Source: a virus. Taken from it: a stretch of DNA of 21,603 nucleotides. Positions 2,771-13,158 of the stretch are shown piece after piece. The DNA lies in the IMG/VR virus record IMGVR_UViG_3300025133_000687, positions 1 to 21,603 of that record; one strand, written 5' to 3'. The translations under genes and the position numbers were made by a program. Within the stretch, counting starts at the first letter, position 1, and every line of letters begins with the position of its first letter. The notes beneath the pieces were generated by a model. That model was not told where the DNA came from and made no database searches. It saw only the letters and a program-made list of their open reading frames with translations.

Positions 2771-5700
2771 TTACCTTATTGGTCCCTTACGGGGGTTTGC
2801 GCTTCCTTTTTGTTCTACTACGATATGTTCTCCTGCTCTACGGTTTACCTCCCCCATCGGGGATTTCGCTTCACGATCAAACTCGCCTGTAGATTCATTA
2901 AATGCACTCGAAGGACCGGTTATTATTCGACCATCGGGGTAAGTCACTCGTATCTGACGAGCCCCATTTAGATAAGGGGTGTCATCGAGTACGACAACGC
3001 CACCATTTTCCCGTGTTGGGATTTCAACCGGCTCATCTGTAGTTGTTCGCGTTACGTTTCCAAATGCCTCGGTTAACGCGGGATCATCTAACCGTTCCAA
3101 TAGATATTCAACCAAACCATCAGCGCGGCCTTCAAGGTTTTTGTCGCCCGCCGCCAGTATCTGGTCTATAGAGCGATCCGCCAAGTCGCGTGTTTGAGCA
3201 GTCTCAGCCCGCGTGTCGGCGTTACGCGCCAGCGTTGCTTCCAGTGTACTCCGCACCGTAGGATCGGATCCCTCGCCGCCCACCTCGCCAAACAGCGCCG
3301 CATCTTGAGCCTGGCCCGCCCGCCTATCAGCAGACCTCGCAAACTGACGGTTTAGGGATGCCGTAGTTAGATCGTCAGCCATCGCTTCACGCTGGCTCTC
3401 TGCGGTCAATAGATCACTGGTTAATCCTCGCTCGGCTCGTTCATCCGCCGTACCAGCCAACCTTCGGTTTGTCCGGTCTGTTGCCAATCCCGACTGTGTT
3501 GTCATCGCCGCCCGGGTATCCGCTCGACCCGCTAATTTTCTGTTTAAAGCCGCCGTAGTTAGATCGTCGGCCATAGCCCCCCGCTGGCTCTCTGCGGTCA
3601 GTAGATCGCTTGTTATTCCCCGCTCGGCTCTATCATCTGCCGCACCAGCCAATGTATCTTCGTCTTTATACAGTCCAGTTAATCCAGCTTCGGTCACTTC
3701 TCGATTAAATTTATCCAACTCGCCCTGGCGCGTTGTTCGCACCGTAGGATCGGACCCTACGCCGCTTACTTCACCAAATAGATCGGCCTCTAAGACCTGG
3801 CCCGCCCGCCTATCCGCAGACGTAGCAAACTGACGGTTTAGCGCCGCCGTAGTTAGATCATCGAGCATCGCTGCACGTTGGCTCTCTGCGGTCAATAGAT
3901 CGCTGGCCAATCCGCGCTCACCCAATGTGTCTTCGCCTCGGAACTGTCCCGTCAGGCCGGCCTCGGCCACCTGTCGATTGAACCTGTCCAACTCACCCTG
4001 GCGTGTGGGCGCCCTATCGTAGACCCCCGTCACATCGGCTTCTGCTAACTCGCGCTGCAACCGATTCGTCAGCTCACTCTCACGCAACGCCCTCTCGGCC
4101 CTATCCTCTGTTGTCTCAAACTGTTGACCCGCCAATGTCTTTCGCATGGTTGGATCAGATCCCGAACCGGCTATTTCACCAAACAGATCCGCTTCCATCA
4201 CCTGGCCCGCTCGTCTATCCGCAGACCGTGCCAACTCGCGCTCTAAGGTTCCAGATAAGACCGACTCGTCAAGCTGCTGCCGAGCCATTGTATCCTCGCC
4301 TTCAAACGTCCCTGTCAATCCCGCCCGAGCCAATGCTTGGTTAAAGGCGTCCATCTCGGCGCCGCGGGTCTGCCGCGCTGGTGCCGAACCTTGGCCGGCT
4401 ACCTCGCCAAACAACTCCGCTTCTTGTGCCTGGCGTTGTAGTAGGCGATTCTGCTGTGCGCTGAGTAGATCGTCGGTCAGGGCGCGACCCTGTAGGGTGC
4501 TAATACCATCATACTGACCCGTCAGTTGTGCCTCGGCCAGCGCATCGGCAAAAGACTGTCGCGTCTGCCGTGCTGGTGCCGAGCCACGCCCGGCGACCTC
4601 GCCAAACAGATCGCCCTGCAAGGCTTCCTCGGCGCGTAGGTCGCCGCGTTGTGCGAGGCGCCGCTGTAGCTCTTGGTTGAGTATGTCTTGCTCTGCTGAC
4701 TGACCGGTAAGGGTCTGCCGCGCCGGCGCCGAGCCGCGCCCGGCGACCTCTCCAAACAACTCGCTCTGTATACCCTCTTCAGCGCGTAGATCGGCCCGGG
4801 TGGCCAACCCCTCGCCAAAACGCGACTGCCTAACCCCTTCCTCGAAGCGTTCGCGCTGTGTGGGCTCTGTCTGCGTCAGCAGCCGCGCCAGCGTCCTGTC
4901 GGCAACATCTTGCTGTAGGTTGGCTGCATCGAACTGAAGGCCCGCCTGGGCCATCCTCGCCGGCAGCGTAGCCTCGCCGCGGATCGCGCCGGTCAACTGC
5001 GACTCAGCAAAATCCCGATTATCTATCATGCCCTGGCGCCCCAGCGCATCACTGATGGCAGCCCGCTGTAGGTCTTGCTCGGCCAGCCCTATCGCATCGC
5101 GCCGCTGCTGGAACGGTAGCGTATCGGCTATGGCCTGGCGCCGTAGCCCTTGCTCGGCTATCGCCCTATCGTCCCGCTGACCCGCTAACCCCGCAACATC
5201 GCTGATGGCGCCGCGCTGTAGCGCTTGCTCGGCGGCTGTGCGCTGGTCGCGCTGCCCGGCCAAACCCGCCACATCGCCAATAGCGGCCCGCGCCAGCTCT
5301 TCGTTAGCCAACCCTAACTGGTCGCGCCTACCCTGGTAGCCCAGCGCATCGGCAATAGCTTGCGACTGTAGGTCGAAGCCCATAGCGTCAACGTCGAGCA
5401 GTTGCTGGTCGCGCCCCCGGGTCAGCTCGTTAAATACATCGGCGGTGTCGCCGCCGCGTAATACGCCGAGGCGATTGAGATATTCGCGCCCCTCGTCCAT
5501 CGAAGTGCCGTAGCGCTCTTCAACGCGGGCGCGTTGTGCGGCCAGCATGGGGTTCTCGCCCCCGAGTAGCCTGTCGCGTATAACGTCTTCGGCGCTCATC
5601 GCCAGGTTGCGGCCAATGGTGCCGTCTGCGTTAGTCCGAACACCTTCGATGTCTACGCCCGAGCCCCCTTCTTGCATACGCGCCAACGCTGCCGCCTCTG

Positions 5701-7000
5701 CTGCGACTAAGCCGGTATTTGCACCCAAGAGGCTGTCGTTAGTCATTCGATCCAATGCCCGGCGCTCGGCAGCGTCGAGACCCGCCGAGCCACCCAGGAA
5801 GTTGTCTTGCTGTAGGCGCTCAAGCGCTTGGGCCTCGGCCTCGTTGGTTAGGGCCGACTGTGGATCCAAGAACTGGCCGCCGGTAAGGCGATCTGTCAGG
5901 CGGGTGTCTATCGCCTGTTCCATCGTAGACATTTCCCGCGCTGGGATATTCGTCTTAGTCAGGTCAGGCAAGATCAAGTCCGTGACCGCACTCTTACCCG
6001 CCGCTTCGGCCTGGTTGGATAACTCGGCCAAAAGCGCTTGCTGGTTACGCCGTAGCTCGTCGTTAGACTGAAGGTCAAGCGCCGCCGTATCGGCCAATTG
6101 TTCGTTGATCGCTGTATTTAATCCGGTGTTTTGGTTAGCCGTTAGCCCACCTACGCCGGCCACTACGTTAGCCGCGCCGGTAACCGCTGGCGCCGCTTGT
6201 TCTATTGCTGCCGTCGAGTCTTGTATCGTCGGCGCTGCTTGCTGGGCAGCTAACGCCGCCGCAGCGTCTGCCTCGCGCTTGGAGCGGGCTGCGGCCTCGG
6301 CTTGTGCTGCTCGTTCCCGCGCCTGTTGCTCTTGTCGCACCCGCTGTAGCTGTGTGTTGGGGTCAGCGTCTTGGGCGGTACCTAAGAGCTGGGCATATTC
6401 ACCGCCGCCCAGAAAGGTGTTCATCTGATCTTGTGTGCTTTGCGACAACTCGTTGAGCGATAGCCCGCCGCTGGTGCGATAATTCAATAAATTAGCACCC
6501 CCATGAAATGCCATTGGATTGCTGCGTATGGCTTCCATGACTTCGCTTAAATTAGCAGCCTCTTGTTGCCTTCGAGCATCCTCCGCTGCCGCCGCCGCCG
6601 CCGCCGCAGCTTTTGCCTCTTGCTCCCTTCGAGTAGCCTCCGCTGCCTCTTGTTCCCTTCGAGCAATCGCCGCTGCCCCTTCTTCAGTTGATACACCTTG
6701 GGTATAAGGCCCAACAGCCGGTGCCGGTGGGGGCGGTGCGCTTTGGTCAGGTCGTTGGCTTTGGTCAAGATTCATCCGTTCCCCTACCGCATCCGCCGTA
6801 GAGGTCAGATAAGACGGCGTAAAACCGCCCATAGTACCAGTTGTCTGGTCTAAAGCACTAAAGACATCGTCCATCGAAGTCTGAGCGCCAGGCGTTGCTT
6901 TCTTAAATGCACTAACCGCTCCACTTAACTGGTCTGCTGATTCAAAAAACGCATCAAAAGCCGATTTCTTCTTTTTAGGTGAACCTATAGTTAGTGCCAT
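2771..7000 (-). CDS. Giant repeat-rich virion protein, 1,409 residues
   Basis: The start ATG at 7000 directly abuts the TAA of the nozzle-like gene (TAAATG). The N-terminus is short and basic (KKKK at residues 9-12). It is followed by a coiled-coil-like Glu/Arg/Ala region with a run of nine alanines near residue 131. The middle holds five tandem 25-residue repeats (residues 548-672). From about 740 to 1,260 there are six spaced modules with the core LFGEVxGxGSxPxxRxT, interleaved with copies of SDLLTAESQR..M.DDLTTA.LNR and AGLTG.F.GEDT. The C-terminal ~130 residues are non-repetitive and look like a small beta-rich domain. No catalytic motif is visible. Size, helical repeats and position next to the nozzle suggest an elongated tail or ejection component built of repeated helices. 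A tail-fibre or tape-measure-like role cannot be excluded. Repeat copies are also similar at DNA level. Leu CTA and Ile ATA codons occur often here. Confidence 0.85.
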   Translation of the reverse strand: MALTIGSPKKKKSAFDAFFESADQLSGAVSAFKKATPGAQTSMDDVFSALDQTTGTMGGFTPSYLTSTADAVGERMNLDQSQRPDQSAPPPPAPAVGPYTQGVSTEEGAAAIARREQEAAEATRREQEAKAAAAAAAAAEDARRQQEAANLSEVMEAIRSNPMAFHGGANLLNYRTSGGLSLNELSQSTQDQMNTFLGGGEYAQLLGTAQDADPNTQLQRVRQEQQARERAAQAEAAARSKREADAAAALAAQQAAPTIQDSTAAIEQAAPAVTGAANVVAGVGGLTANQNTGLNTAINEQLADTAALDLQSNDELRRNQQALLAELSNQAEAAGKSAVTDLILPDLTKTNIPAREMSTMEQAIDTRLTDRLTGGQFLDPQSALTNEAEAQALERLQQDNFLGGSAGLDAAERRALDRMTNDSLLGANTGLVAAEAAALARMQEGGSGVDIEGVRTNADGTIGRNLAMSAEDVIRDRLLGGENPMLAAQRARVEERYGTSMDEGREYLNRLGVLRGGDTADVFNELTRGRDQQLLDVDAMGFDLQSQAIADALGYQGRRDQLGLANEELARAAIGDVAGLAGQRDQRTAAEQALQRGAISDVAGLAGQRDDRAIAEQGLRRQAIADTLPFQQRRDAIGLAEQDLQRAAISDALGRQGMIDNRDFAESQLTGAIRGEATLPARMAQAGLQFDAANLQQDVADRTLARLLTQTEPTQRERFEEGVRQSRFGEGLATRADLRAEEGIQSELFGEVAGRGSAPARQTLTGQSAEQDILNQELQRRLAQRGDLRAEEALQGDLFGEVAGRGSAPARQTRQSFADALAEAQLTGQYDGISTLQGRALTDDLLSAQQNRLLQRQAQEAELFGEVAGQGSAPARQTRGAEMDAFNQALARAGLTGTFEGEDTMARQQLDESVLSGTLERELARSADRRAGQVMEADLFGEIAGSGSDPTMRKTLAGQQFETTEDRAERALRESELTNRLQRELAEADVTGVYDRAPTRQGELDRFNRQVAEAGLTGQFRGEDTLGERGLASDLLTAESQRAAMLDDLTTAALNRQFATSADRRAGQVLEADLFGEVSGVGSDPTVRTTRQGELDKFNREVTEAGLTGLYKDEDTLAGAADDRAERGITSDLLTAESQRGAMADDLTTAALNRKLAGRADTRAAMTTQSGLATDRTNRRLAGTADERAERGLTSDLLTAESQREAMADDLTTASLNRQFARSADRRAGQAQDAALFGEVGGEGSDPTVRSTLEATLARNADTRAETAQTRDLADRSIDQILAAGDKNLEGRADGLVEYLLERLDDPALTEAFGNVTRTTTDEPVEIPTRENGGVVVLDDTPYLNGARQIRVTYPDGRIITGPSSAFNESTGEFDREAKSPMGEVNRRAGEHIVVEQKGSANPRKGPIR
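3230..4780 (-). repeat. Interspersed LFGEV modules and related repeats
   Basis: Six copies of the LFGEV.G.GS.P..R.T core begin at residues 748, 798, 863, 939, 1074 and 1236 of the 1,409-residue protein, so spacing grows from 50 to 162 residues. The later gaps hold further repeats (SDLLTAESQR, DDLTTAALNR, AGLTG..GEDT). At DNA level the blocks starting near 3363, 3555 and 3849 share long identical stretches such as TGGCTCTCTGCGGTCA. This is coding repetition rather than a non-coding array. Confidence 0.85.
4985..5359 (-). repeat. Five tandem 25-residue (75-nt) repeats in the giant protein
   Basis: Residues 548-672 of the 1,409-residue product divide exactly into five 25-residue units, each beginning with AIADALG, AIGDVAG, AISDVAG, AIADTLP and AISDALG respectively. 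Each has an RD or similar pair near position 12 and a helical A.EELARA-like second half (for example NEELARA, EQALQRG, EQGLRRQ, EQDLQRA). The exact spacing points to a helical solenoid or stalk made by unequal duplication. Confidence 0.85.
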
Positions 7001-9753: not shown

Positions 9754-10338
9754 CTATACCGCCACCCCTACATCGCCGGGCGTAAACTGATCGGCCTCGA
9801 TGTCAAAGCGGACGTTGCCGCCCAAGCGCTTGCCGTTTGCCTTGGCGTCCAGGTGAGACTTGTATTCTTCGGTTTTAACCGGCTTACCCGCGGCATCCAG
9901 CTTGGCCAGCCTGGGATCGTCGGTCTTGCCCGTTTCGGCGTCTTCTGCAACAAACTTGGTCAGATAACCCGGCGGCAGCGGCTCAAATCCTTTAGGATGC
10001 TCTACCTCAACGCCACCATAGACGCGCAGCGCCGGCTCGGCATGGTAGTTGCGCTCGTAGTGGCCGCTGGGTGGGACCGAATCTGCCGGCAGATTGAGGA
10101 TCTTACGTAGGCCGGGATCCTGGCTGGCCGTAGCCACGAACTCTTTGGCCAGCTCGGGGTCTTTCAGCGCTTCGCGGATCTGAGCTTTTATATCGGGTGC
10201 CGCGGCCTTGGCTTTGGCCTTGGGCTTGGGCGCCACATCGACCAGTGGCGTGAGCGTAGAGGGCTCGGCGCCCTGGGTCTCGTCCCGAGGCGCACCTACC
10301 GGCTGCCCCATCGCATCAAACTCTTCTTTTTTTGCCAA
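9754..10338 (-). CDS. Uncharacterised phage protein, 194 residues, TTG start
   Basis: The start is a TTG at 10338 (MAKKEEFDAMG). It is supported by AGGAG nine bases upstream, in the same geometry as the scaffold gene's AGGAG and ATG; the first downstream ATG would drop nine residues and lose the ribosome site. The protein has an acidic N-terminus, a Pro/Lys/Ala linker near residues 37-48, a helical part with DPELAKEFVATASQDPGL, and a polar C-terminus. I do not recognise a family. It is the first gene after the second leader copy and is tightly linked to the 90-residue gene and adaptor, so it probably belongs to the head-tail or tail assembly set. Confidence 0.75.
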   Translation of the reverse strand: MAKKEEFDAMGQPVGAPRDETQGAEPSTLTPLVDVAPKPKAKAKAAAPDIKAQIREALKDPELAKEFVATASQDPGLRKILNLPADSVPPSGHYERNYHAEPALRVYGGVEVEHPKGFEPLPPGYLTKFVAEDAETGKTDDPRLAKLDAAGKPVKTEEYKSHLDAKANGKRLGGNVRFDIEADQFTPGDVGVAV

Positions 10339-10344
10339 ACTATG

Positions 10345-10397
10345 TATCTCCTGTCGTTTTGCGAGGCTGGAGAGGCGCGATCCGCCAAGAGTCGCGG
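10345..10397 (-). promoter_or_regulatory. Leader element, copy 1 (upstream of the 194-residue gene)
   Basis: This 53-nt block is nearly identical to 12957-13009 (two small indels or mismatches). Read on the minus strand it starts CCGCGACTCTTGGCGGATCG and ends in GACAGGAGATA, so it includes the ribosome site. CGCGA and TCGCG can pair around an 11-nt loop. It ends 6 nt before the TTG start, the same distance as in copy 2. It could be a phage-specific promoter with a shared leader, or an RNA-level control element. Confidence 0.7.
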
Positions 10398-10423
10398 CCT
10401 GTTGTCCATTACGTTACGTGAGC

Positions 10424-10459
10424 GGTAGCTGAGAGTAGATTGCTCTACCCCCAGCTACC
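10424..10459 (-). terminator. Strong 36-nt stem-loop after the decoration gene (processing site or Rho-independent-like structure)
   Basis: On the minus strand GGTAGCTG pairs with CAGCTACC (8 bp). Inside, GTAGA pairs with TCTAC around a GCAA tetraloop of the GNRA type, and the GGG/TCT between them can pair with wobbles, giving up to 16 continuous pairs. It lies 17 nt after the stop of the decoration-protein gene. There is no T-run after it, so it is not a standard intrinsic terminator; it may protect or mark the 3' end of the capsid mRNA. Called as terminator-like only. Confidence 0.5.
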
Positions 10460-10476
10460 CTCGTTACTTACCGCTA

Positions 10477-10980
10477 CTAATTATCAAGCCCGTCAGATAC
10501 GGACGGACGATTAAGCTGGAACTCAGCCAAACCGCTTGATGGTGTATCTCTCGCAGATACCGACACGGCGCCCAAAACAAAATCGCCGGCTACATCGGCA
10601 TCATCGAGACTACCTGCCGTTGAAGTCAAAAACCCAGCGCTTGTCGTAGCGACAAACCCCGTCAGCACTAAACCGGCAGCCTGGCCACCGATCTGGTACC
10701 AACCCCATTGGCTGGCTACATTAGCACTCATAGCAACAGCCACCTGGCCAATACCATCGGCAACGGCCAGTGCAGTGGTCTGGTTGTCGGCAATCGTCAC
10801 CCACGACCCTACCGCAGTTGAGGCAACACCCGCGAGATAGATAAACTCACCCACGCCGTAGCCCGTAGATGCTTGGTCTTCCGCCAGGACAATCATGCCC
10901 AGCGGCGCCTTCTGTGTGGTGCTGGTTTCGTCTATCGCCTGGTCAAATGTGACCGGGCCGATAATCTTGAAATCACTCAT
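10477..10980 (-). CDS. Capsid decoration / head protein, 167 residues
   Basis: The ATG at 10980 has AGGAAGG upstream and follows the capsid gene by 19 nt. The sequence is small-residue-rich and beta-like: YGVGEFIYLAGVASTAVGSWVTI, then IGQVAVAMSANVASQWGWYQI, and an AGFLTSTAGSLDDAD stretch. I recognise the VAVAMSANVA..WGWYQI block from small proteins coded directly after the major capsid gene in environmental phages; these are thought to bind the outer capsid. Position and composition agree with a decoration or cement protein. A direct structural role has not been shown here. Confidence 0.8.
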   Translation of the reverse strand: MSDFKIIGPVTFDQAIDETSTTQKAPLGMIVLAEDQASTGYGVGEFIYLAGVASTAVGSWVTIADNQTTALAVADGIGQVAVAMSANVASQWGWYQIGGQAAGLVLTGFVATTSAGFLTSTAGSLDDADVAGDFVLGAVSVSARDTPSSGLAEFQLNRPSVSDGLDN

Positions 10981-10999
10981 TTTAAATTACCTTCCTGGC

Positions 11000-11980
11000 C
11001 TATATGCCGGTGATAGCCGTAGCAACGCCAGAGCGCCTACGATTATTTGTGCAGAGCTGCACCCCAGCGACCATGTAACTGAGCTGTGCCAATTGTCCGT
11101 TGCTCTGAAGCGATACGAACGGCGTCTTCTTGAAGTTCGCTTGCTTCATCACACGCAGCTTAATTGAATCGGTGTCCACCATGTAGCTGTGGAGCGACGC
11201 GCAGTCGTTATCGGCCACTACCTGGGCGCCCATATAACTCGGGAACTCAGGGCCACTAACGCCTTTGATATTTGACAAGGTGGTCTCAGCATATCCCGTA
11301 GAGGCGATTGCTGTGCGATATGCCGCGGCAATAGAATAGGTGGTCACGATAGCGTTGTTACGACCACCCTGCTTGCGGCAATCGTCCATGATCGTGTTCC
11401 AAGCCAACATACCGTCAAAGACGTTGTTGTTTTGGTCCGTGAACGTCTTGCTGGTGGTATACTTCTGGTTTTGCCAGAAGGTCGAGGTGGAGCTGTTGAT
11501 GCCCCCGACAGTACCCGTGCCAGCGTCAGCGATGATGTCTTGATAGCCGAGCATCGTCTTGCCGCTCTGAGCGCTGAGAAGATCCTCGTTGATCGCCTTC
11601 AAGAGCGAGTTCATCGCGTTGTTACCCAGCGCATCGAGCAAATCAAAAACCTGCTCTTCGCCGCTGTTTTCCCAGTTGGTCGTATCGTCCAATACAATCG
11701 GCACCGCGTAATAGCGCCGCTTGTAAAAGGCCGACTCGAATGGGTCCACCGGGCTCTTGCTCAACGGGTCATAGCCGTCGAACGTCTCTGCGGTGCCGGC
11801 AGAGCTTTCCAGTATCACCTGGATCTCCTTGCCGCCGCCGTCTACCATCTGCATACCGCGCTTGCGGTGCATCGCCAAGGCTTTATACGCCTCGAACGTG
11901 TTGTCGATCACCTGGGGCGCTATGGTTCGACGGGTCGAACTCCAGCGCGAGTCCCAAGTCTCTGAGGTTGATTGTGCCAT
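11000..11980 (-). CDS. Major capsid protein, 326 residues
   Basis: The ATG at 11980 is preceded by AAAGGA eight bases upstream, one of the best ribosome sites in the window, as expected for the most abundant virion protein. The sequence fits an HK97-fold capsid protein: an N-terminal helix (TIAPQVIDNTFEAYKAL), a beta region with KRRYYAVPIVLDD, a long helix with EEQVFDLLDALGNNAMNSLL, then WNTIMDDCRKQGGRN, PEFPSYMGAQVVADNDC and a C-terminal KTPFVSLQSNGQLAQLSY. The QVVADNDCA..HSYMVD.DS.KL pattern is typical of phage capsid proteins that end in this beta-hinge. It lies between scaffold and decoration genes. No N-terminal protease-cleaved delta domain is apparent; the separate scaffold supports that. 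Confidence 0.9.
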   Translation of the reverse strand: MAQSTSETWDSRWSSTRRTIAPQVIDNTFEAYKALAMHRKRGMQMVDGGGKEIQVILESSAGTAETFDGYDPLSKSPVDPFESAFYKRRYYAVPIVLDDTTNWENSGEEQVFDLLDALGNNAMNSLLKAINEDLLSAQSGKTMLGYQDIIADAGTGTVGGINSSTSTFWQNQKYTTSKTFTDQNNNVFDGMLAWNTIMDDCRKQGGRNNAIVTTYSIAAAYRTAIASTGYAETTLSNIKGVSGPEFPSYMGAQVVADNDCASLHSYMVDTDSIKLRVMKQANFKKTPFVSLQSNGQLAQLSYMVAGVQLCTNNRRRSGVATAITGI

Positions 11981-12011
11981 TATTGCTTTCCTTTAAGCAA
12001 AATTCCCATCA

Positions 12012-12950
12012 TCACATCGTTGCCTTGATCTCTGACATCGCTTGCGCTTTAGAGATCACGCCCGCCGTTTCCGTTAGCGGTGGACTGCCGGCTTGCGTAG
12101 CCGTAGAGCGCTTGGCGTTGTTACGCGCCTGGCGCTGCTGCGTCACGGCACTCCCTTGATCGGTTAGGCGCCGCCCCGTAGCCAGAGACATAGCCTCGGC
12201 TACAGTAAACGCTTCCCCGGTGTCAGGGTTTTCGTGCCGCGTCAGGGCGCCGACAATACCGCGCTGGCTCTCGGTCCATGCGTCGACCTTACCGAAGACC
12301 GCTTCCGCGGCCTCGATCTGAGCATTTGCGTTACTGCGGTGGACAGCCGTCTGCTGCTGCTGCAACTGATCCACTACGCCTATCGTAGAGTTCAACCGCT
12401 CCAGGTCAGGACGCAGCGGGCCGATTTGCTCTTCTATCAGCTTCGTTGCTATCTCTTGCGCTCTTTCCTGTACCAGTTGATCTACTACGGTCAGCCCCCG
12501 AGCCTCTTCCGGTCCCAATTGGGCCGCCAGTTGCTCTAAGGGGTTGGCCTGTGGCGGCTGCGATGCTCTGGCCTGGGCCTCGGCGTAGATACGCCGCTCC
12601 TCGGCTATCTGAGCCCGCTCTGCCGCCACCTGACGCTTATCGGCAGCTACTTCTCGCCGCTCGTCGGCTACCGCTTGCGTCTTGCGGGTATAATCCGCTA
12701 AACGCAAGCCATCGCCGCTATCGTCATCGGCTTGCTGCTGTGATGGTGATGGGGTGTCGTTGGTTGGTTGAAGTGGTGGTGCTGCTACCTCACCGTCACC
12801 CGCTGCCGGTTGCTCTGCGCTTGCATCGCCAGAATCGGGCGCATCCGTTGCCTCGATGAACCCCATACCCATCTCGGATATGGATTCACTCGGCGCCGCG
12901 TCACCCGGTTGCTCTGCCGTTGCCGCAGAATCGACTGCGATCTCGGTCAT
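12012..12950 (-). CDS. Scaffolding protein candidate, 312 residues
   Basis: The ATG at 12950 has AGGAG nine bases upstream, inside the shared leader. The N-terminal ~85 residues are acidic, rich in Pro, Ser, Ala and Gln and likely disordered. Residues ~90-130 form a strongly charged coiled coil (DERREVAADKRQVAAERAQI). Further helices follow, including an EEARGLTVVDQLVQERAQE part, and a basic/Gln-rich segment (TQQRQARNNAKR) lies near the C-terminus. This build (acidic, helical, basic tail, directly before the capsid gene) is that of podovirus scaffolds, which guide procapsid assembly and then leave. No protease was seen in the window, so the scaffold would probably be released uncleaved. Confidence 0.8.
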   Translation of the reverse strand: MTEIAVDSAATAEQPGDAAPSESISEMGMGFIEATDAPDSGDASAEQPAAGDGEVAAPPLQPTNDTPSPSQQQADDDSGDGLRLADYTRKTQAVADERREVAADKRQVAAERAQIAEERRIYAEAQARASQPPQANPLEQLAAQLGPEEARGLTVVDQLVQERAQEIATKLIEEQIGPLRPDLERLNSTIGVVDQLQQQQTAVHRSNANAQIEAAEAVFGKVDAWTESQRGIVGALTRHENPDTGEAFTVAEAMSLATGRRLTDQGSAVTQQRQARNNAKRSTATQAGSPPLTETAGVISKAQAMSEIKATM

Positions 12951-12956
12951 AGTATT

Positions 12957-13009
12957 TATCTCCTGTCTTTTGCGAGGCTAAAAGAGGCGCGATCCGCCAA
13001 GAGTCGCGG
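12957..13009 (-). promoter_or_regulatory. Leader element, copy 2 (upstream of scaffold and capsid genes)
   Basis: Second copy of the 53-nt block at 10345-10397, again ending 6 nt before a start codon (ATG at 12950) and including its AGGAG. In this copy CGCGA/TCGCG is followed by CCTCTTTT, making it mildly terminator-like, and GGAGGA lies just upstream at the 5' side. That GGAGGA sits nine bases before a TTG that could open a short leader reading frame ending at the TAA in the ribosome site. The short frame is not kept in copy 1, so I do not call it a gene. Confidence 0.7.
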
Positions 13010-13029
13010 TCCTCCGAAATACGTCTAAA

Positions 13030-13072
13030 TGTTCCAAAATCTTGTTCCGCTAAAATCAGCGATTGGAACATT
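13030..13072. repeat. 43-bp intergenic repeat, copy 1, with inverted ends
   Basis: Begins TGTTCCAAAATC and ends GATTGGAACATT, so its ends are inverted copies of TGTTCCAA. An extra GTTCC lies 13 bp inside. It matches the copy at 13116-13158 at 41 of 43 positions. It lies upstream of the leader and the scaffold gene. It could be an operator pair for a dimeric repressor, a recombination or nuclease site, or a pair of RNA hairpins. Confidence 0.75.
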
Positions 13073-13115: not shown

Positions 13116-13158
13116 TGTTCCAAAATCTTGTTCCATTAAAATCAGCGATTGGAACATT
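13116..13158. repeat. 43-bp intergenic repeat, copy 2, with inverted ends
   Basis: Same layout as copy 1 and 86 bp away from it (start to start). The only differences are two adjacent bases (GC in copy 1, AT in copy 2) near the middle. It starts 12 bp downstream of the zinc-ribbon gene's stop codon as read on the minus strand. The 43-bp segment between the copies is unrelated, so this is not a simple tandem run. Confidence 0.75.

What the first reader, a model, noticed from the sequence alone, without database searches (positions are those of the whole stretch)
10345..13009. Same 53-nt leader placed identically before the capsid and tail transcription units
The blocks at 10345-10397 and 12957-13009 are nearly identical (they differ only by two small changes) although the genes that follow are unrelated. 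Each ends exactly 6 nt before the start codon and includes the ribosome site and a CGCGA/TCGCG stem. The first serves a TTG start, the second an ATG. Conservation of about 53 nt, longer than a promoter core, suggests RNA-level control or a phage promoter plus fixed leader. It would tie scaffold-capsid and tail expression together. I know no named element with this sequence.
Basis: partly seen in the sequence, partly recalled or inferred. Interest (0 to 1): 0.6.

Follow-up and report, generated by a model that had tools for sequence, protein, structure and literature searches.

The report
Shared RNA hairpin leader of phage genes
Two nearly identical leaders in an uncultivated phage turn out to be copies of an apparently undescribed RNA hairpin that sits directly before the ribosome-binding sites of portal, scaffold, neck and early genes across a group of related phages, which suggests that these phages control several genes through one shared RNA signal.

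Summary
The repeat is real: a 27-nt identical core plus a near-identical flank, each copy ending 6 nt before a start codon, far beyond chance. It is one lineage's version of a wider element. A scan of 2.9 million viral contigs with its 3' half found the same element before different genes in related phages. The element is a hairpin showing the hexaloop UUGGCG (variants UUAGCG, UUGCCG, CUGGCG), a spacer, the anchor GCCUCGCA, then the Shine-Dalgarno sequence. It precedes scaffold genes (20 contigs), the gene in the neck position (13), one portal gene and an early gene (5); single contigs hold up to three copies. Stems change in sequence but keep pairing: own arms pair best among all 720 permutations. 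Rfam 15 has no match. I read it as a cis-acting RNA element that controls translation, probably through a factor that recognises loop and anchor; factor and effect are inferred. The window's neck copy is probably a recent gain: a sister contig identical in scaffold and decoration gene lacks it. Promoter, terminator and mobile-element readings fit less well.

The parts
12951..13015 (-). Scaffold-gene leader copy of the element: hairpin, anchor, SD and spacer up to the ATG
   Evidence: R1 match 12960-13020 at 84.7 bits; independent models R2 and R3 also hit it (E 2.6e-4 and 0.06)
12983..13015 (-). Hairpin of the scaffold copy: outer stem GGAGG/CCTCT (13011-13015 with 12983-12987), bulge AC, inner stem CGCGA/TCGCG
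   Evidence: folds and arm tests
12995..13000 (-). Hexaloop TTGGCG (scaffold copy)
   Evidence: conserved in all copies as TTGGCG, TTAGCG, TTGCCG or CTGGCG
12968..12978 (-). Anchor GCCTCGCAAAA (scaffold copy)
   Evidence: GCCTCGCA present in every copy
12960..12964 (-). Shine-Dalgarno AGGAG of the scaffold gene
   Evidence: sequence
10339..10403 (-). Neck-gene leader copy of the element, up to the TTG start
   Evidence: R1 match 10348-10408 at 72.6 bits; R2 E 5.8e-6; R3 E 4.4e-4
10383..10388 (-). Hexaloop TTGGCG (neck copy)
10357..10367 (-). Anchor GCCTCGCAAAA (neck copy)
10348..10352 (-). Shine-Dalgarno AGGAG of the neck-position gene, predicted to pair with a CUCC that only the neck copy has
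   Evidence: GGAG unpaired probability 0.01, against 0.48-0.69 in the window's scaffold copy
12012..12950 (-). Scaffolding protein gene behind the first leader
   Evidence: phrog_3927, E 3.5e-6
11000..11980 (-). Major capsid protein gene, next in the cassette
   Evidence: phrog_9953, E 6.7e-35
9754..10338 (-). Gene in neck position (TTG start), 194 aa, no family match, behind the second leader
   Evidence: same position as the motif-bearing 158-aa gene in L107
10420..10462 (-). Older long boundary hairpin directly upstream of the neck copy; present in all relatives with or without the element
   Evidence: mean z -5.0 over 15 distinct leaders

Best explanation
The block is a copy of a cis-acting RNA element in the 5' leaders of several genes of one phage group. 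In the mRNA it forms a stem-loop that shows an invariant hexaloop, UU(G/A)GCG or a close variant. A single-stranded spacer and the invariant anchor GCCUCGCA(A) follow, 2-7 nt upstream of the Shine-Dalgarno sequence. Shown by comparison: the stem is kept as a stem while its sequence changes, loop and anchor are kept as sequence, and the element is always in sense orientation next to the SD of portal, scaffold, neck or early genes. Inferred: a trans-acting factor, most simply a phage-encoded RNA-binding protein, reads loop and anchor together and sets how well ribosomes start on these genes, so the genes are adjusted jointly. In the window the scaffold copy is the inherited one; the neck copy was most likely gained recently, and its two differences let the leader cover its own SD (predicted).
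For: (1) 24 contigs carry it. It lies before scaffold in 20, before the neck-position gene in 13, before portal in 1 and before an early gene in 5; L107 and L098 hold three copies each. (2) All 19 distinct copies fold into a hairpin with the same hexaloop at its tip although stem types share no sequence (GGAGG..CCTCT, GGGGGG..CCCCCC, GGTCTG..CAGACC, GGGTTCG..CGGACCC, CCGTTGCT..AGCAACGG). (3) Own arms pair best of all 720 permutations among six representatives, and best of 24 within the window's clade. (4) A model built only from the early copies (R2) finds the window copies at E 5.8e-6 and 2.6e-4. (5) Among GCCTCGCA sites in all loci fetched, 74 of 82 with a nearby SD also have the hexaloop upstream, against 4 of 54 without an SD (loci are redundant). 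(6) Anchor and SD stay adjacent while the hairpin-anchor spacer varies, as expected for an RNA acting on initiation.
Against: No expression data exist. Folding energy is not clearly below dinucleotide shuffles for single copies of the window's clade (z about 0.4 to -1.5). Column-wise covariation is weak on sequence alignments because the stems slip in register. The independent lineages are few (about six stem types). The motif was found by requiring the exact anchor, so anchor variation is under-sampled. No trans-acting factor is identified. Loop and anchor could also form a pseudoknot without any factor.
Confidence: 0.62

Rival explanations
1. Passive boundary hairpin: an intrinsic terminator, processing site or 5' stabiliser in front of gene cassettes, with no specific recognition.
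For: Some copies have hairpin plus U-tract (L014 CCUCUUUUUU). More distant relatives have unrelated hairpins or real terminators at the same place before scaffold (L019/L034, L026, L030-L033), and every relative has a long hairpin before the neck gene.
Against: U-tracts are missing in L015, in the window's neck copy and in the L093/L107 and early types. The scan of the region did not list the blocks as terminators. A passive hairpin would not keep hexaloop and anchor sequence across different genes.
Confidence: 0.14
2. DNA-level element: a phage promoter or operator with fixed initial transcribed sequence.
For: Several copies per genome before gene cassettes, always in the same orientation, as phage promoters are. 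Most of the genome beyond the structural genes is unseen for the window's clade.
Against: Stem sequence is free but complementarity is kept; the spacer between the conserved parts varies; there is no T7-type RNA polymerase in 14 related records including a 69.5-kb one, with T7 as positive control; only 20-45 nt of gap remain before some copies (L040, L014); no sigma-70-like site lies at the blocks.
Confidence: 0.12
3. Ligand- or temperature-sensing pseudoknot (riboswitch-like) without a protein: the hexaloop UU(N)GCG pairs with CGCAA of the anchor next to the SD.
For: The three commonest loops, UUGGCG, UUAGCG and UUGCCG, can all pair with CGCAA with one bulged base; 16 of 19 copies can form all five pairs and 3 form four (by inspection).
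Against: No compensatory change between loop and anchor was seen; the duplex energy is small and its preferred register differs between variants. Genes as different as portal and early gene make a metabolite ligand less natural.
Confidence: 0.09
4. Small mobile or recombinogenic palindrome spread by copying, without regulatory role.
For: Presence or absence at the neck leader between L007 and L014, which are otherwise identical over scaffold and decoration gene.
Against: Every copy sits next to an SD in sense orientation; no copies elsewhere in about 440 kb of relatives; exact-pattern hits in bacterial genomes lie in coding sequence without the rest of the motif.
Confidence: 0.03

Closest known systems
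[quoted passage not shown] PMC11373665)
   Same: Short sequence that includes the SD, repeated a few nt before the start codons of many phage genes, about half with an inverted repeat just upstream; role in initiation proposed, mechanism unknown.
   Different: Sequence unrelated (GGGATAGGAGCCC). SAS are restricted to the half of the genome with non-structural genes, here mostly structural genes. The authors found that ESAS repeats do not support RNA pairing, and later work reads ESAS as holding promoters; here the stem pairing is kept while its sequence changes.
T7 gene 10 leader (own knowledge, not tested)
   Same: Stem-loop, unpaired stretch and SD in front of a head gene; raises translation and stability.
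   Different: One T7-RNA-polymerase transcript leader with AU-rich enhancer; no shared hexaloop or anchor; not repeated with conserved loop before other genes.
P22 scaffolding-protein autoregulation (own knowledge; no open paper found)
   Same: Post-transcriptional control of a scaffold gene in a phage with the same gene order (portal, scaffold, coat).
   Different: No defined shared RNA site that I know of; here the element is also before portal, neck and early genes.
Marine and phage cis-regulatory RNA motifs such as manA, wcaG, PhotoRC-II (PMC2864571)
   Same: Structured 5'-UTR elements known mainly from marine metagenomes and phages.
   Different: Other structures and genes; no Rfam model hits the element.

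Membership tests
SAS/ESAS | 13-bp GGGATAGGAGCCC next to the start codon | tested here: not met
   the sequence around the SD is GCCTCGCAAAAGACAGGAG (SAS sequence)
SAS/ESAS | repeated before start codons of several genes, includes the SD | tested here: met
SAS/ESAS | upstream inverted repeat whose changes do not support RNA pairing | tested here: not met
   pairing is kept: best of 720 permutations
Any Rfam 15 family | match at gathering score | tested here: not met
   no match in the window; permissive search gives only CRISPR-DR31 at 18.3 bits against a cut-off of 35, and hits far below cut-off elsewhere in L106
Intrinsic terminator | GC-rich hairpin followed at once by a U-run | tested here: not met
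   U-run present in L014, L018 and the window's scaffold copy, absent in L015, the neck copies, portal and early copies
Single-subunit phage RNA polymerase promoter | cognate RNA polymerase gene in the phage group | tested here: inconclusive
   PF00940 absent in 14 related records, T7 control positive; the records are fragments
Single-subunit phage RNA polymerase promoter | conserved contiguous double-stranded sequence with start site at its end | tested here: not met
   stem sequence and internal spacing vary between copies
CsrA/RsmA site | GGA in the apical loop of a hairpin near the SD | tested here: not met
   loops UUGGCG, UUAGCG, UUGCCG; no GGA in the L093/L107 loops
Riboswitch | ligand binding that changes expression | not testable with these tools
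   needs in-line probing or reporters

The most novel reading that the evidence does not exclude
An undescribed RNA regulon of tailed phages: one hexaloop-plus-anchor RNA element placed before early, portal, scaffold and neck genes lets a phage-encoded factor (for example an early protein, or free scaffold or capsid protein) adjust translation of the assembly genes together, an assembly-feedback system that uses a shared RNA operator in a DNA phage.
Probability: 0.3. Interest if true: 0.82.

Novelty: new variant of a known kind. Interest (0 to 1): 0.63.

Why it matters
Post-transcriptional control of structural genes in tailed DNA phages is poorly mapped, and repeated leader elements such as SAS have stayed unexplained for over a decade. 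A compact element with evolving stem pairing, an invariant loop and an invariant anchor in front of defined genes gives a direct handle: a factor can be fished with the loop, and the stoichiometry of portal, scaffold and neck proteins can be tested as an RNA-controlled trait. It is also a usable sequence signature for an uncultivated phage group.

Tried and rejected
Leader peptide in the block: the reading frame is broken by 1-nt length changes of the U-run. Coding on the opposite strand: the frames differ between the two copies. Intrinsic terminator: no U-run in many copies. Simple two-state SD switch in which the 3' arm alternates between 5' arm and SD: predicted for L035 and L040, marginal for L014, not for the window, L018 or L015, so not general. 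Bacterial prophage copies: pattern hits in genome contigs lie in coding regions without the rest of the motif; R3 in 385 genomes of one bacterial class gave only three weak hits without loop and anchor. Isolated or named phages with related capsids (Ruegeria 45A6, Bradyrhizobium ppBjS10J-1, MW202803) lack it. A second hit in L109 (7854) has the anchor but no hairpin and is probably a gene end. L046, L047 and L049 were first counted as relatives and then dropped as coding matches. RNAalifold on a plain alignment gave another, weaker structure because stems slip in register. A first model built only from the window's clade (R1) found no further copies; the wider family appeared only after scanning with the anchor.

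Full report
WHAT IS THERE. The window is a 21.6-kb IMG/VR virus record with its structural genes on the minus strand: terminase, portal, an 874-aa protein, a zinc-ribbon-like protein, scaffold, major capsid, decoration-type protein, a 194-aa protein with a TTG start (called neck gene here), a 90-aa protein, an SU10-type adaptor and further tail genes. The two blocks are identical over 27 nt and nearly so over 53 nt, and each stops 6 nt before its start codon. Shuffles give no such match.

CLOSE RELATIVES. A capsid search gave 30 related loci. The block stands before the scaffold gene in every contig of the window's own clade whose scaffold leader is held, including L015-L017, L035 and L040; the L015 and L035 scaffolds are only 61-63% identical in protein to the window's. 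It stands before the neck gene only in the window, L006, L007, L008 and L009; L014 and L018 have the same neck leader without it. L007 and L014 are 100% identical over scaffold and decoration gene, yet one has the neck copy and the other not. The neck copy in this clade is therefore most likely a recent gain. More distant relatives have other hairpins or terminators in front of scaffold, and all relatives have a long hairpin in front of the neck gene (mean z -5.0).

THE WIDER FAMILY. In the clade's copies the sequence GCCTCGCAAAA next to the SD never changes while stems do. A scan of 2.9 million viral contigs with this anchor, an SD and a start codon gave 32 stretches. Besides the known relatives and nine that look like chance, twelve share the rest of the element. 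A relaxed search in the fetched loci added further copies. These phages are related to the window phage but distant: L107 capsid protein 37%, portal 36%, scaffold 28% identical; L109 belongs nearer, with portal and terminase 86%. In L107 the element precedes portal, scaffold and the gene in neck position; in L098 scaffold, neck gene and an early gene on the other strand; in L109, L106 and L111 an early gene. The window ends before the region where its own early copy, if it has one, would lie.

ANATOMY. From 5' to 3': a stem of 7 to about 15 pairs, sometimes with a small bulge; a hexaloop UUGGCG, UUAGCG, UUGCCG or CUGGCG closed by C-G or U-G; a spacer of roughly 5-20 nt; the anchor GCCUCGCA followed by A-rich letters; 2-7 nt; the SD; 4-10 nt; AUG, UUG or GUG. 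All 19 distinct copies fold this way with the hexaloop at the tip. Own arms pair better than any other assignment of arms among six representative copies (best of 720) and within the window's clade (best of 24). A model made from the early copies alone recovers the window copies at E 5.8e-6 and 2.6e-4, and a model made from the L093/L107 type recovers the neck copy at 4.4e-4; part of that score comes from the shared anchor.

HOW IT PROBABLY WORKS. Stem pairing kept while stem sequence drifts, loop and anchor kept as sequence, fixed adjacency to the SD and sense orientation point to action in RNA on translation initiation. What reads the loop and anchor is unknown. The simplest proposal is a trans-acting protein. 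A loop-anchor pseudoknot is an alternative: 16 of 19 copies can form all five pairs UU(N)GCG with CGCAA, but without any compensatory change as proof (inspection; weak duplexes). In the window the two copies are predicted to differ in effect: the SD of the neck copy is almost always paired with a CUCC that exists only there, while that of the scaffold copy is about half open.

ALTERNATIVES. A promoter or operator would conserve the stem as sequence, needs room that L040 and L014 lack, and no T7-type polymerase was found although the T7 control rang. A terminator needs a U-run that many copies lack. A mobile palindrome would also sit elsewhere; it does not in about 440 kb of relatives.

KNOWN OR NEW. 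Rfam has no match. The nearest described idea is SAS/ESAS of cluster K mycobacteriophages, which resembles it in placement but differs in sequence, in target genes and in the lack of RNA pairing. Named phages with related capsids lack the element. I rate it a new variant of a known kind (phage start-associated leader elements and cis-regulatory RNAs).

LIMITS. All records are fragments; copies cluster into about six stem types; the anchor was required by the search; there are no expression data.

Noticed in passing
window 13030-13072 and 13116-13158 (minus sense): Two 43-nt repeats AATGTTCCAATCGCTGATTTTARYGGAACAAGATTTTGGAACA just upstream of the scaffold leader. In L018 and L035 the inverted arms change together (TGTTCGAC/GTCGAACA, TGTTCCAA/TTGGAACA); L014, L040 and L015 lack the whole stretch of about 150 nt. 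Operator array or small insertion.
   Followed up: partly
window 10420-10462 (minus sense): Long hairpin between decoration and neck genes, kept in structure but not in sequence in all relatives (mean z -5.0), mostly without U-run; similar place to the T7 terminator after the capsid gene (own knowledge).
   Followed up: partly
window 12924-12941 (minus sense): Codons 4-9 of the scaffold gene (ATCGCAGTCGATTCTGCG) are nearly unchanged at synonymous sites in the clade and form a second small hairpin CGCAG/CUGCG.
   Followed up: partly
window 10477-11980: Mosaic head cassette: the decoration gene is 86-87% identical to L010/L015 but 67% to L007/L014, although the scaffold is 97-98% identical to L007/L014.
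   Followed up: partly
L093:10193, L098:13917, L106:5818, L109:6964, L107:749; window 10338: Many genes behind the element start with TTG or GTG (early genes, the L107 portal, the window's neck gene).
   Followed up: no
window 2771-7000: A 1409-aa protein gene with many imperfect internal repeats (families D1-D7).
   Followed up: no
L030, L031, L032, L033, before scaffold: More distant relatives have strong hairpins with U-runs (intrinsic-terminator-like) shortly before the scaffold SD, in place of the element.
   Followed up: no
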